From: Patescibacteria group bacterium
GTDB taxonomy: Bacteria; Patescibacteriota; Microgenomatia; UBA1406; GWC2-37-13
Reading direction: 5' to 3'
Length of the DNA stretch: 64,000 nt
Assembly: GCA_026415975.1 (NCBI GenBank)
Contig: JAOAFZ010000006.1
Coordinates: 1-64,000, forward strand
Below the pieces are notes generated by a model. It did no database searches and was not told where the DNA came from. It saw only the letters and a list, made by a program, of their open reading frames with translations. Of the stretch, positions 34,693-63,100 are shown one piece after another; position 1 is the stretch's first letter; the number at the start of each line of letters is the position of its first letter. The position numbers were made by a program, and so were the translations under genes.

Positions 34693-34708
34693 ATACCAGA
34701 TCTGGTAT
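34693..34708. promoter_or_regulatory. perfect 16-bp palindrome in the tgt/CoA-gene divergent promoter
   Basis: ATACCAGATCTGGTAT. It overlaps the tgt -10 hexamer and sits just upstream of a plus-strand TACACT, so a single dimeric regulator could control both divergent genes. Confidence 0.65.
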
Positions 34709-34730: not shown

Positions 34731-35750
34731 ATGAACCGCCACGCCGCCGTTGCCGGCACGTTTGACCGCTTCCATGCCGGACATCGTACGTTACTTACTA
34801 CCGCTGCCGCTTCTGCTGAGCGGCTCTCGATCGGCATCACTCATCCGTCCATGACTGTCGGCAAAGTATATTCGCAACAGATTCAGACTTTGGAAGAACG
34901 GACCGCCGCAGTACATTCGTTTGTTACCGGACAAGGCTGGCAGGATCGGGCGGCGTACTTCGTGTTGCAGGATATTTACGGGCCGGCACGCGATGATGCT
35001 TCAATGGACACGCTGGTGATTACCGCCTCTTCGCGGGAAAACGCCAGGCGCGTTAACGAGGCGCGCCGTGCCTCGGGTATGCCGGAGCTGGAACTGATTA
35101 CGGTTCCCCTTGTAAGAGCAGAGGATGGAAAACCCGTCAGCTCGACCCGGATCCGCACCGGCGAAATCGACCGCGAAGGCCGGGTGTACGATCTGCTTTT
35201 TGCAGGCCATTCACGGTTCCGGGCTACCCGAGAGGCGCGGGAACAGCTCCGGGTTCCCCAGGGAACCGTATACAAAGGACCGGAGGAAAAACCCGCCGTA
35301 GCCGGTGCTGCTGTGGCTGCTGTTTTGCGGGATACGGCGCCCCCAATGATCATTGCCGTCGGTGATATTGTTACCGCGACTCTACAGGAGCAGGGGATCG
35401 AGCCGGATTTAAGCATTGTGGATTACCGCACCCGCCGGCGGGAGCTACCCGATATTTCCCACACCGCACCCCGGCAGTATGGTCCGCTCCCGAATGAAGC
35501 CGGCACCGTGGATGCCGGAACCGCTCTATTCCTTTCCCGCCTGATCCGCGAATCCGTCTGGCAGCGCGAGCACTTCCAGATAATTATCCGCGGAGAAGAA
35601 GACCTGTTGGCGCTCCCTGCCATCATGGTTGCACCGCCGGGTGCGGCAGTACTCTATGGCCAGTTCGACCAGGGGATCGTGGTGGTATTGGCTACCGAAG
35701 AACAGAAAAAACGGGCGCGTACCATGCTCGAGGAGTTTAAACCAGAATAA
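34731..35750 (+). CDS. fused archaeal-type phosphopantetheine adenylyltransferase and GTP-dependent dephospho-CoA kinase (DUF359)
   Basis: 339 aa with two domains. Residues 1-~150 are a nucleotidyltransferase of the archaeal/eukaryotic PPAT type: AVAGTFDRFHAGHRTLL (HxGH motif) and PVSSTRIRTGEI. Residues ~165-339 match DUF359, shown in Thermococcus to be a GTP-dependent dephospho-CoA kinase: IIAVGDIVTATLQEQGIEPD, SIVDYRTRRRE, NEAGTVDAGTA, RGEEDLLALPAI and GAAVLYGQFDQGIVV. Together they would perform the last two steps of coenzyme A synthesis, by the archaeal and not the bacterial CoaD/CoaE enzymes. A TACACT lies 14 bases before the ATG. GC-rich. Confidence 0.87.
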   Translation: MNRHAAVAGTFDRFHAGHRTLLTTAAASAERLSIGITHPSMTVGKVYSQQIQTLEERTAAVHSFVTGQGWQDRAAYFVLQDIYGPARDDASMDTLVITASSRENARRVNEARRASGMPELELITVPLVRAEDGKPVSSTRIRTGEIDREGRVYDLLFAGHSRFRATREAREQLRVPQGTVYKGPEEKPAVAGAAVAAVLRDTAPPMIIAVGDIVTATLQEQGIEPDLSIVDYRTRRRELPDISHTAPRQYGPLPNEAGTVDAGTALFLSRLIRESVWQREHFQIIIRGEEDLLALPAIMVAPPGAAVLYGQFDQGIVVVLATEEQKKRARTMLEEFKPE

Positions 35751-36039: not shown

Positions 36040-36163
36040 ATGCGGAAAATTATCCTATGCGTATATGATATGTAAATACAATAGAATGTAAAGAGTTCAT
36101 AAGAAGGGATATTCTTTGCATTTCCGGCTTCTGCGCGCTGGAAAATCCGTTATACTATACCCT

Positions 36164-38608
36164 ATGGCACAGCCTAAATATATTCCCGCCGCGTTCGAGC
36201 AGAAATGGGCCGAACAGTGGGAGAAAGACCAGATCTATAAGACCCCGGATCCGAAGTCCGCAGAGAAAAAGGCATATGTGCTAGACATGTTCCCGTATCC
36301 CTCCGGTGCCGGGCTGCATGTAGGACACGTGGAGGGGTACACTGCCACCGACATCTACTCGCGGTATCTGCGCATGAACGGCTACGCAGTACTGCACCCG
36401 ATGGGCTGGGACGCCTTCGGCCTGCCTGCCGAAAACTACGCAATAAAAACGAACGTTCACCCGGAGATTACGACGAACAATGCCATCAAGACGTTTATTG
36501 CGCAGATTAAGCGTACCGGTCTTTCCTATGACTGGTCGCGCGAGCTTGGCACTCACCGTGCGGACTACTACAAATGGACGCAATGGCTGTTCCTCTTGCT
36601 GTATAAAAAGGGGCTGGCGTACCGCAAGGAAGCACTCGTGAACTGGGATCCGGTTGATCAGACGGTGCTCGCCAACGAGCAGGTGCTGCCCGACGGCACC
36701 GCGGAACGCTCCGGTGCTAAGGTGGAGCAGCGAATGCTCACGCAGTGGTTTTTTAAGATCACCGACTACGCCGAGCGACTCCTGCAGGACCTGGATAAAC
36801 TTGACTGGCCCGAGAGCACCAAGCAAGGCCAGCGAAACTGGATCGGGAAATCTACGGGAATTAACATAACGTATCAGGTTGATGGCATGGATGCACCCAT
36901 CACCGTGTTCACCACACGGCCTGATACTAACTTCGGTGCCACGTTTATCGTATTGGCACCGGAGAGTGAATATGTGCGTTCGCATATCGAATCGTTCCCC
37001 AAGAAGGACGAGGTGAAGATATACCTGGAACAGGCCAAGTTGCGTACGGAACTGGAGCGCATCTCGAATAAGTCCAAGACGGGTGTTTTTACCGGTCTTT
37101 ACGCGATCAACAACCTCAACGGGAAAAAACTCCCTGTGTATGTGGGCGACTTTGTACTGGCCACCGTGGGAACCGGCGCCCTGGTAGGCGTGCCCGGCCA
37201 CGACATGCGTGACTTCGAGTTTGCACAGGCAATGGGGCTCCCGGTCATCCGCGTGGTGATTGGTCCTGACGGCGACACCGGGCCGATTACGACTGCCGAG
37301 CAGGTGCAGGAAGGAGAGGGAACTATGGTTAACTCGGAATTCCTCGATGGTATGGACACCATAGCCGCCAAGGAGAAGATTATGGACTACCTGGAAGAGA
37401 AAGGCTGGGGCAAGCGGGTAACCAACTACCGCCTACGCGACTGGCTCATCTCCCGACAGCGCTTCTGGGGTGCACCCATCCCGATCGTCTACGACAAAGA
37501 CGGAAAAGACCATCCCGTAGATCAAGCCGAGCTGCCTGTTATTCTTCCGATGGACGTGGAATTCAAACCCACGGGCGTCTCTCCGCTGAAAGACCACGCT
37601 GGTTTCCAGGCTGTGGATACGACAAAGTATGGCGAAGGTGCGTACCGCGAGGCGGATACAATGGACACCTTCGTGGATTCGTCCTGGTACTTTTTGCGCT
37701 TCTGCGATCCGCACAACGAGACAGAGTTCGCAAGCCGCGAAGCAATGAACAAGTGGGGTCCCGTTGACTTGTATGTGGGCGGTGCGGAGCATACCGTTCT
37801 GCATCTCCTGTACGCGCGTTTCTTTACTAAGGTGCTCTTCGACGAGGGCTACATTACCTTTGATGAGCCGTTTCTTAAGCTACGCCACCAGGGCACAATT
37901 CTGGGCCCGGACAACCGCAAGATGAGCAAGCGGTACGGCAATGTGATCAATCCGCTGGAGGTCGCCGATCAGTTCGGTGCCGATACGCTGCGTATGTACG
38001 AGATGTTCATGGGGCCGTTTTCGGATATGAAGGCGTGGAATACGCAGAATATTCAGGGAATCTATCGGTTCCTGACGCGGATCTGGAATGTGTTCCATAC
38101 CGAAGCAAGCTTTGCAACTGCTGCCACCGGCCGGGATGCCGATCCCGCGGTTGTTTCCCGGCTTCAGAAGACCATCGCGAAGGTGGGAAGTGATATTCTG
38201 GAGATGAAATTCAACACCGCCATCTCTTCCATGATGGAGTTTATGAATGCTTGGGAAGGGAAGGCAATTTCCCGCGAGGATGCGCAGAAGTTCCTGCTGA
38301 TCCTTGCCCCGTTCGCGCCGTTTATAACCGAAGAGCTCTGGCACACCGTGATGGGGCAGACGACCTCGATTCATACGCAGCGCTGGCCAGAAGTAGATAC
38401 GAGTAAGATTCTTGCAGAGACGATCGAGCTGCCGGTACAGGTGAATGGGAAAGTGCGCAGTAAGATTACGATCGAGTCCGCGGACGTTCCCGAGGAAGAA
38501 ATCCGGAAGCTGGTTATGGCCGATCCCCGGGTACTGCAGTTTACCGGTGGCAAGGTAGCCAAGTTTATCTATGTTCCGGGCCGGATTGTAAATATCATCG
38601 CGAAGTAA
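36164..38608 (+). CDS. leuS: leucyl-tRNA synthetase
   Basis: Class Ia synthetase. HIGH motif in PYPSGAGLHVGHVEGYTATD; the KMSKS loop is KMSKRYGNVINP. An inserted editing domain (~220-400, TTRPDTNFGATFIVLAPE) and the LRDWLISRQRFWGAPIPI block are present, as is the C-terminal VQVNGKVRSKI. 814 aa is at the short end for bacterial LeuRS. I place the ATG at 36164, seven bases after TATACT. tRNA-Lys lies 62 bases downstream. Confidence 0.96.
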   Translation: MAQPKYIPAAFEQKWAEQWEKDQIYKTPDPKSAEKKAYVLDMFPYPSGAGLHVGHVEGYTATDIYSRYLRMNGYAVLHPMGWDAFGLPAENYAIKTNVHPEITTNNAIKTFIAQIKRTGLSYDWSRELGTHRADYYKWTQWLFLLLYKKGLAYRKEALVNWDPVDQTVLANEQVLPDGTAERSGAKVEQRMLTQWFFKITDYAERLLQDLDKLDWPESTKQGQRNWIGKSTGINITYQVDGMDAPITVFTTRPDTNFGATFIVLAPESEYVRSHIESFPKKDEVKIYLEQAKLRTELERISNKSKTGVFTGLYAINNLNGKKLPVYVGDFVLATVGTGALVGVPGHDMRDFEFAQAMGLPVIRVVIGPDGDTGPITTAEQVQEGEGTMVNSEFLDGMDTIAAKEKIMDYLEEKGWGKRVTNYRLRDWLISRQRFWGAPIPIVYDKDGKDHPVDQAELPVILPMDVEFKPTGVSPLKDHAGFQAVDTTKYGEGAYREADTMDTFVDSSWYFLRFCDPHNETEFASREAMNKWGPVDLYVGGAEHTVLHLLYARFFTKVLFDEGYITFDEPFLKLRHQGTILGPDNRKMSKRYGNVINPLEVADQFGADTLRMYEMFMGPFSDMKAWNTQNIQGIYRFLTRIWNVFHTEASFATAATGRDADPAVVSRLQKTIAKVGSDILEMKFNTAISSMMEFMNAWEGKAISREDAQKFLLILAPFAPFITEELWHTVMGQTTSIHTQRWPEVDTSKILAETIELPVQVNGKVRSKITIESADVPEEEIRKLVMADPRVLQFTGGKVAKFIYVPGRIVNIIAK

Positions 38609-60134: not shown

Positions 60135-63100
60135 TTACTGGGGTCCGAACCGGAGTGCGGATCCTTCGTTCATAATTATTTCCACTTGTCGTGGCGTGAG
60201 AGCATAACTATAAACTCGCACATCGTCCAGAATGGAGGTACTATAGCTGTCGGAACTTGAGGCACCCATCCGAATGGTAGTCGAAGGCGCGGTATCCGCG
60301 ACTGCTGTTTCCGCAGTTGTTGACGATCCGTCCAGTTTTCCGTTCACGTATATTGCGTGTTGATCATTAATCGAGTCGAAAACGCCTACCACATGGTACC
60401 ACTGGCCGGTTACTGGAGTCGTAACGGTTCCGGGGACATCGCGACGCGAAGAACTCCCGTCTCCGGTACGGAACAAAAACCCAAACTTCAGTCCGGATGC
60501 GCCATACGAGTTGTTTAGTGCAAATATACCTGCGCGAGTAAAACCATTGTCATTGACTGCTTCAAAATAATATTGATGAGCATTGCCCGATGTGGGTAGC
60601 GATAATGGCTTCACCCAAAGTGAAATACTGTACTGACTCAAGCCACGCACACTCGCCGTCACCGGTGCACTAATTGTCATGCCTGGCCCGTCGTATGCGA
60701 TCGCAGCACCGAATTTTCCGGCTGCTCCCGCATATCGAGCATGAGCTGCGTTGCCGGATGTGCAGGTACCAGAGCTGGTATAATCGGCTCCACCCGAATA
60801 ACTGAGTGTGCCGTTATGGCTATTGCCTGACGCATCGTAGATCGTGTCCCCCGTGCATTCATCAAATTTCCAGTGGGCAAACGGGGCCCCTCGGTTGTAG
60901 TCCCAAGCGATCTGTGCCGGGGTGCGGGCGTAGTTGAATATCGTAACCTGATCTATAATACCTGCGAAGTATGAATTTACAGTACCACTCAGATCGTCAT
61001 ACGCGCCGATGATTGAATAACCGTTCAGTGGAGAATTCAGGTCGCTATACGTACCGGTAGAAACCGGTTTCCCGTTCATATACATGGTGTAATTACCGGA
61101 ATTCCATGACATACCGACATACGACCAGGTATTGGTGGGTATATTTACGCCCGTATCGGTAGAAGCGAGTGAGCCGAGTCGCAGTGCGAGGTTGCCTGTC
61201 GTTTGCTTGCGGAGGAGGTAGATACGGTTGGTATCCCGATTCCCCATTACGATCATTTCATCGGTACTCGGCGAAGAAACCGTCGGATAAACCCATGCCG
61301 AAATAGTTCCTGTAGTATTGGATAACCCGGTCATTGTACTAACCCGTAAATACGCATTTGTTCCGTTTAGTGATAGTCCCGAACCGAACTTGCCACGCAC
61401 CCAGGTCGGGGAATTCTGGAATGTGGCGGTATTATTGTTCCCCGTGGTATCCGCGACAGATGTCCCGGTGTTCTCGTCAAATTTCCATTCAGCGACGGGA
61501 GGTGTACAACTCGACGTATCCCCGGGAATACAATACGCCCGGTTCTGGTTGAACGAAGGCGTTTTTCCGTCCGACTCTGTAGAAACCGCACCGTAGACCG
61601 CAGTGGAGCTCTGGTTATAAAGAAGCGCAATCTGATCCGCAGTCAAGACGCTGTTGAACACTTTCACTTCGTCGATCGTGCCGGCAAAGGTGCGGTCCCC
61701 GGCGGTGCGGTTGCCGATATTCAGGTTATTTGCTGCATCGGAGTTCACGCTTCCGCTTCCCATGGTCTGGTCGATATAGCTTGCCACTTCTTTCCCGTTC
61801 AGGTACAGCCGGACGATATTATTTGTCGTATCGATGATTCCCGCAACGTGTTGCCAGGTATTCAGCGTAATACTGCCTGAAGCGGCAGTTGCCTGGACCG
61901 GACTAGTTGCGCGTTCGCGGTAAATCCGGAAGGTATTCTGGCCAGTGTTGTTTACGAGAGTAAATCCGAAGACTGTTGAGGTATTTTCCTTTGAAACTAT
62001 GTGCCCGAAGTTTCCCTCCCCCCATCCAGTCGGGTAAATCCATGCGGATACCGTGATAGGGTTGAGGTTATCTATGGTCGAATCTGAGCCGAGGTTGACG
62101 ATGTCATTATTCCCGTCGAAGATAAGCGCGCTGCCGATTTTGCCGGAGCGCGTCCAGCCGGATGTCGAGGTGGCCGGTAATGCGAAGTTGCTCATCGTTC
62201 CGTTCAGGATGCTCCCGGAGTTACCAGCGTTAAAAGCGGTAGTGCCTTGGTTCTCATCGAGTTTCCAGTGCCCCATGGCGGAACTGATAGGAGAGCCCGG
62301 TGCAGGATGTCCCGCGTTATAGTCCTCAATAATTTGCGCTGCAGAGCGGGCGTAATTGTAGAATTTTACATCGTCAATGGGGCCGTTAAAGTATGCGGTT
62401 CCATCAGCGGCTCCGATCATGAAGTCATCCGGATTATTTATGGTCGGCCAGCTTCCGTTGGATGACGATGTTGAGGGCAGAAGCTTACCATCCATGTACA
62501 GGTTCACCGTGTTTGCGGCCCGGTCTGCTACAACGGCGTAATGGTGCCAGTTTCCGTCCGCAATGTCTCCGGTTGAAATTGCTCTGCGATCGCTGGTCCC
62601 GGATGATTGTATACCCCTTGCCACCAATAATTGCCCCGAGGTATTACAGGAGATATCGCCGCAGACTGCCAGACTGTATTGTTCATAGGGAGTGTTGAGT
62701 TGAACTTTTCCAGCGAGAATACTATTCTGGTTTGTATTTGCCGGACGGGCCCACAACATCAGCGACCAGCTGCCCGATTCCGGGTTAAGTACAGCATTAT
62801 CCGGAATGGTCACCGATTCGTTCGTGCCATTGAACTGAAGCGCTCCGCCGAACTTGCCGAGAATCCAGTCGGGGGTGCCATCGAAGGTTCCTGTCAGGCT
62901 ATTGCCACCAATGTCAAATACCGAGGTTCCGATGTTTTCGTCGAATTTCCAGTATGCAGCAGGTTGAGGAGCCCAGGTATACAGTGAAATAATTTCCTGT
63001 TGCGAGAGAGCCCGATTATACACCCTCAGTTCGTCGAGTTGACCGGCATAGTCACCGCCAAGTGATGACGATCCGATGCGGATTCCATCGGTGTTATCTA

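What the first reader, a model, noticed from the sequence alone, without database searches (positions are those of the whole stretch)
34731..35750. Archaeal-type coenzyme A enzymes fused in one bacterial gene
An archaeal/eukaryotic-type phosphopantetheine adenylyltransferase is fused to DUF359, the GTP-dependent dephospho-CoA kinase family of archaea. Bacteria normally use unrelated CoaD and CoaE. The fusion would carry out the last two steps in one protein and suggests gene exchange with archaea or an ancient alternative pathway in this lineage.
Basis: partly seen in the sequence, partly recalled or inferred. Interest (0 to 1): 0.75.

Follow-up and report, generated by a model that had tools for sequence, protein, structure and literature searches.

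The report
Archaeal-type CoA synthase in Microgenomates bacteria
A tiny-genome uncultured bacterium makes coenzyme A with a two-in-one enzyme built from the archaeal, not the bacterial, versions of the last two pathway enzymes, and about a third of its bacterial class does the same.

Summary
Window 34731-35750 (+) encodes one 339-aa protein: an archaeal/eukaryotic-type phosphopantetheine adenylyltransferase (PPAT, aa 3-153) joined to DUF359, the archaeal GTP-dependent dephospho-CoA kinase (DPCK, aa ~163-336). The model (pLDDT 95) matches solved archaeal DPCK (8jvc) and PPAT (3do8); the three DPCK aspartates are invariant. The genome (1.31 Mb, 96.6% complete) has no bacterial CoaD or CoaE, and no CoaBC. 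It is a Roizmanbacteria-like Microgenomates (CPR) genome. In its class 69 of 187 sampled genomes carry the gene, always fused; 5 others carry a different fusion, bacterial CoaD-CoaE, and none has both. On a tree of both domains the bacterial fusions form one clade that follows taxonomic family, so the gene is old there, not a recent import. In some lineages of the window's family an archaeal-type NMN adenylyltransferase is fused in front, giving a predicted trifunctional protein. The same PPAT-DPCK architecture was already reported in uncultured archaea (2019); its use by a bacterial lineage was not found in the papers searched. GTP use, bifunctionality and the source of 4'-phosphopantetheine are inferred. 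New member of a known kind, moderately interesting.

The parts
34731..35750 (+). Bifunctional PPAT-DPCK (CoA synthase) gene, 339 aa
34731..35195 (+). PPAT domain, archaeal/eukaryotic type (aa ~1-155), with GTFDRFHAGH (aa 9-18) and SSTRIRTGEIDREG motifs
   Evidence: NF001985 130 bits; 3do8 Foldseek TMt 0.80-0.85; G9 T10 F11 D12 H15 G17 H18 R142 invariant in 36 fused homologues
35217..35738 (+). DUF359 / arCOG04076-type GTP-dependent dephospho-CoA kinase domain (aa ~163-336); D212, D231, D291 align with TK1697 D48, D67, D125
   Evidence: PF04019 95.5 bits; 8jvc phmmer 1.1e-22 and Foldseek TMt 0.85; residue mapping; invariance
36116..38608 (+). leuS (leucyl-tRNA synthetase), conserved neighbour of the fusion in the window's family; not part of the mechanism
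   Evidence: LeuRS beside the fusion in L013, L019, L025, L027, L034, L038, L040, L041, L148
34693..34708 (.). Perfect 16-bp palindrome ATACCAGATCTGGTAT between divergent tgt and the fusion; possible regulatory site, function unknown

Best explanation
The gene encodes a bifunctional CoA synthase. The N-terminal domain (nucleotidyltransferase fold with HxGH) adenylylates 4'-phosphopantetheine with ATP to give dephospho-CoA. The C-terminal domain (a thiamine-pyrophosphokinase-like derived Rossmann fold, unrelated to the P-loop CoaE) phosphorylates the 3'-OH of dephospho-CoA, most likely with GTP, to give CoA. It replaces bacterial CoaD and CoaE in this Microgenomates genome and in about a third of its class. 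Shown here: domain identity, fold, intact catalytic residues, absence of CoaD/CoaE, exclusive distribution, old family-level inheritance. Inferred: both activities, GTP as donor, origin by transfer from archaea, and that this genome starts from salvaged 4'-phosphopantetheine because CoaBC is missing.
For: Domain hits. Model pLDDT 95.0, pTM 0.91; Foldseek top hits are archaeal DPCK 8jvc (E 2.5e-17, TMt 0.85) and archaeal PPAT 3do8 (TMt 0.80). D212/D231/D291 match TK1697 D48/D67/D125; in PMC6650551 D48A and D67A dramatically reduced function in vivo; all three are invariant in 36 homologues. No CoaE, no CoaD (the only other PF01467 gene is RfaE-like). Class survey: 69/187 with DUF359, in every case fused to archaeal PPAT; archaeal PPAT over cut-off never without DUF359; 5/187 with CoaE, none overlapping; CoaBC present in 24 of 69 DUF359+ genomes against 1 of 118 others (p 4e-11 by Fisher, not corrected for relatedness). 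Own genome has a CoA-using ADP-forming acetyl-CoA synthetase-type gene. Concatenated tree: 56 bacterial fusions one clade, 95/96; family labels need 13 changes against 29.5 shuffled.
Against: No biochemistry on any bacterial member. Donor specificity cannot be read from sequence here. 45 of 69 DUF359+ genomes, this one included, lack CoaBC, so the substrate supply is unexplained. CoA-user ACD does not correlate with the fusion across the class (Fisher p 1.0), so many relatives use CoA without any recognisable PPAT/DPCK. Single-domain trees are poorly resolved, and the trees have no outgroup.
Confidence: 0.88

Rival explanations
1. The fused gene was taken up whole from archaea that already had the fusion (Poseidoniales-like), so there was one fusion event in all.
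For: Same domain order in marine group II/III archaea (PMC6650551) and in an uncultured archaeon (L046). A tree with all fusions held together is not rejected (lnL difference 5.75, p-AU 0.41).
Against: In the free tree the Poseidoniales fusions (100/100) and the CPR fusions (95/96) are separate clades with standalone archaeal genes between them. Asgard genomes show a further fusion with a diverged PPAT-like domain, so fusion recurs.
Confidence: 0.25
2. Only one of the two domains is active in this genome; the other is structural or regulatory.
For: Asgard proteins L176/L180 carry a DUF359 domain with a diverged PPAT-like domain beside a separate intact PPAT.
Against: Both motif sets are intact and invariant in 36 homologues, and no other PPAT or DPCK was found in the genome.
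Confidence: 0.06
3. The contig is archaeal or chimeric, so the gene is not bacterial.
For: The protein family is archaeal.
Against: Same gene in 69 of 187 class members from many genera and in NCBI-named Roizmanbacteria and Levybacteria; beside LeuRS in nine other loci, window LeuRS about 48-58% identical to theirs; 0% contamination estimate.
Confidence: 0.01

Closest known systems
Archaeal GTP-dependent dephospho-CoA kinase, arCOG04076/DUF359 (TK1697 of Thermococcus kodakarensis; PDB 8jvc/8jvf/8jvg)
   Same: Fold, length, three catalytic aspartates, 31% identity over 178 aligned columns
   Different: Standalone in Thermococcus; here fused behind PPAT, in a bacterium; donor untested
PPAT-arCOG04076 fusions of group II/III Euryarchaeota (e.g. 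AIF21550.1, PMC6650551; L042-L060 here)
   Same: Same two domains in the same order
   Different: A separate clade in the tree (single origin not excluded); archaeal hosts
Eukaryotic CoA synthase (COASY)
   Same: PPAT-DPCK order; archaeal/eukaryotic-type PPAT (established knowledge)
   Different: The COASY kinase domain is CoaE-type P-loop and ATP-using; this one is DUF359
Bacterial CoaD-CoaE fusion in the same class (L118, L119)
   Same: Also joins the last two steps in one protein
   Different: Built from the unrelated bacterial enzymes TIGR01510 + TIGR00152; never in the same genome as the DUF359 fusion

Membership tests
Archaeal GTP-dependent dephospho-CoA kinase (DUF359, PF04019) | Profile match above curated cut-off | tested here: met
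   95.5 bits against 25
Archaeal GTP-dependent dephospho-CoA kinase (DUF359, PF04019) | Conserved Asp48, Asp67, Asp125 of TK1697 | tested here: met
   D212, D231, D291 align and are invariant
Archaeal GTP-dependent dephospho-CoA kinase (DUF359, PF04019) | Fold of solved archaeal DPCK | tested here: met
   8jvc Foldseek prob 1.00, TMt 0.85
Archaeal GTP-dependent dephospho-CoA kinase (DUF359, PF04019) | GTP-dependent phosphorylation of dephospho-CoA | not testable with these tools
   Needs enzyme assay
Archaeal/eukaryotic-type PPAT (NF001985/PRK00777) | Score over the curated cut-off and far above bacterial CoaD | tested here: met
   130 bits (cut-off 104) against 13 for TIGR01510
Archaeal/eukaryotic-type PPAT (NF001985/PRK00777) | HxGH nucleotidyltransferase motif and SSTRIR-type motif | tested here: met
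   GTFDRFHAGH and SSTRIRTGEIDREG present; key residues invariant
Bifunctional CoA synthase (PPAT-DPCK) | Both domains in one polypeptide, kept in relatives | tested here: met
   339-aa ORF; 69 of 69 class members fused, counting one split by contig ends and two cut by a contig start
Bifunctional CoA synthase (PPAT-DPCK) | Catalyses both steps | not testable with these tools
   Needs enzyme assay
COASY (eukaryotic CoA synthase) | CoaE-type P-loop kinase domain | tested here: not met
   No PF01121 match in the protein or genome
Bacterial CoaD / CoaE | TIGR01510 / PF01121 match | tested here: not met

The most novel reading that the evidence does not exclude
An archaeal-type, GTP-dependent CoA synthase was fixed early in Microgenomates and is the standard route to CoA there. 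It later gained an archaeal-type NMN adenylyltransferase in front in some Roizmanbacteria-like lineages, giving a trifunctional NAD/CoA enzyme, while one family uses a convergent CoaD-CoaE fusion instead.
Probability: 0.55. Interest if true: 0.62.

Novelty: new member of a known kind. Interest (0 to 1): 0.5.

Why it matters
CoaD and CoaE are treated as the universal bacterial route to CoA. Here a bacterial class mostly uses, where it has any recognisable PPAT/DPCK at all, the unrelated archaeal kinase. Standard bacterial pathway annotation (CoaD/CoaE profiles) would call these genomes CoA auxotrophs when they can probably finish the pathway. Two unrelated fusions for the same two steps in one class, plus a fusion with NMN adenylyltransferase, make a natural experiment on why the last CoA steps get joined. 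The patchy CoaBC also bears on what these small, probably host-dependent cells take from others.

Tried and rejected
A single-protein scan of genome contigs found nothing; the profile scan worked. Single-domain trees were too poorly resolved to place the bacterial clade, so both domains were concatenated using paired archaeal genomes. ADP-forming acetyl-CoA synthetase was tried as a CoA-demand marker and did not correlate with the fusion. The second PF01467 gene of the genome was considered as CoaD and rejected as RfaE-like. Weak CoaE hits (about 20 bits) in the class were set aside as likely other P-loop kinases. Contamination and chimera were rejected by synteny. Paper searches for CPR plus CoA biosynthesis gave no report of this; subscription papers were not searchable. 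A plasmid search found only haloarchaeal PPATs.

Full report
OBSERVATION. Window 34731-35750 (+) is one ORF of 339 aa starting at ATG. Pfam finds CTP_transf_like at aa 8-143 and DUF359 at 214-336. NCBIfam assigns the first half to the archaeal PPAT subfamily NF001985 (130 bits, cut-off 104) with bacterial CoaD at only 13 bits, and finds the GTP-dependent DPCK model over aa 163-335, below that model's Thermococcales-specific cut-off. phmmer to PDB finds archaeal DPCK 8jvc (1.1e-22) and archaeal PPAT 3do8 (1.6e-15).

STRUCTURE AND ACTIVE SITES. AlphaFold2 on 36 fused homologues gives pLDDT 95.0, pTM 0.91. Foldseek against PDB ranks 8jvc first (E 2.5e-17, TMt 0.85), then 3do8 (TMt 0.80), then bacterial PPATs. 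D48, D67 and D125 of TK1697 were proposed as catalytic, and D48A and D67A dramatically reduced function in vivo (PMC6650551). They align with D212, D231 and D291 here, which are invariant in the 36 homologues, as are the GTFD..H.GH residues of the PPAT domain.

GENOME CONTEXT. The window lies in a 1.31 Mb, 10-contig, 96.6% complete genome. Searches find no CoaE, no CoaB/CoaBC, no bacterial CoaD, and one other CTP_transf_like gene, which is RfaE-like. A CoA-using ADP-forming acetyl-CoA synthetase-type gene is present (PF13607, 1.7e-49). So the genome can be expected to make CoA from 4'-phosphopantetheine but not from pantothenate by known enzymes. Nine of twelve DUF359+ genomes of the window's family also lack strong CoaBC, so the absence is probably real rather than an assembly gap. 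PanK was not tested.

DISTRIBUTION. DUF359 occurs in 9 of 287 genomes sampled across the phylum and in 69 of 187 of the class. Named relatives are Candidatus Roizmanbacteria and Levybacteria, i.e. Microgenomates (CPR/Patescibacteria). All 69 are fused, counting one split by contig ends and two cut by a contig start, and archaeal PPAT over cut-off never occurs without DUF359. Strong CoaE occurs in five genomes of one family only; the two read in full are bacterial CoaD-CoaE fusions of about 375 aa and the other three have CoaD and CoaE matches in one frame of the same length. None of the five is DUF359+. Bacterial CoaD over cut-off occurs in those five plus one other. Three other members of that family have the DUF359 fusion instead (G406, G416, G436). 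CoaBC is found in 24 DUF359+ genomes and one DUF359- genome, which ties the gene to CoA synthesis. About 60% of the class has neither DPCK type.

SYNTENY. In the window's family the fusion sits next to leuS in nine other loci, sometimes with a GNAT acetyltransferase beside it. In Levybacteria it lies a few genes from tdh/kbl-like genes, a CoA-using threonine route. In L041 (identical to G413) and L040 the ORF (about 500 aa) has an extra N-terminal archaeal-type NMN adenylyltransferase (NF002243 127.1 bits, cut-off 127, for L041), next to NAD synthase in L040; in L038 the NMN adenylyltransferase gene overlaps the start of the fusion gene. The window protein does not have this extra domain.

PHYLOGENY. 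Single-domain trees are weak. A tree of both domains (95 rows, 332 columns) puts 56 CPR fusions in one clade (95/96) and 13 Poseidoniales fusions in another (100/100). Within CPR the tree follows family: 13 changes for 13 family labels (least possible 12), shuffled mean 29.5. A single origin of all fusions is not rejected (p-AU 0.41). No outgroup was available, so transfer from archaea is inferred from breadth (near-universal in archaea, rare in bacteria), not from rooting.

KNOWN. The 2019 paper that found archaeal DPCK did so because it is fused to PPAT in many uncultured archaea (PMC6650551). The architecture is therefore known; the passages read there do not mention bacterial members, and no paper found in the library describes it in CPR. 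The library lacks most subscription papers, so prior notice elsewhere cannot be excluded.

VERDICT. Both activities and GTP use need an assay.

Noticed in passing
L040:4413-5972, L041:4482-6038 (= L128), G356:C2 (486-aa frame): Predicted trifunctional ORF: archaeal-type NMN adenylyltransferase + PPAT + DUF359 DPCK, beside NAD synthase in L040; L038 has the NMN adenylyltransferase as an overlapping upstream gene.
   Followed up: partly
L118:1018-2148, L119:1414-2529: Bacterial CoaD-CoaE fusion (about 375 aa) in one family of the same class, in L118 right behind an ADP-forming acetyl-CoA synthetase-like gene: a convergent CoA synthase.
   Followed up: partly
window 34693-34708: Perfect 16-bp palindrome ATACCAGATCTGGTAT in the short gap between the divergent tgt and the fusion gene; a 2-mismatch copy at 60766-60781. 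3 matches at up to 3 mismatches against 0.31 expected.
   Followed up: partly
L176:859-1878, L180:841-1863 (Asgard archaea): DUF359 fused behind a diverged PPAT-like domain (not recognised by Pfam in L176), in genomes that also hold a separate intact PPAT.
   Followed up: partly
L194:754-1995 (G449): Bacterial CoaD at the end of a longer ORF whose N-terminal half resembles an HD-type hydrolase by eye; no CoaE or DUF359 found in that genome.
   Followed up: no
L110 (Candidatus Eisenbacteria): Archaeal-type standalone PPAT grouping with Thermoplasmata in the tree, and no DUF359 in that genome: separate transfer or misbinned contig.
   Followed up: no
class-wide, e.g. G415, G306, G324: Many Microgenomates encode ADP-forming acetyl-CoA synthetase but no recognisable PPAT or DPCK of either type, suggesting direct CoA uptake or an unknown enzyme.
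   Followed up: no
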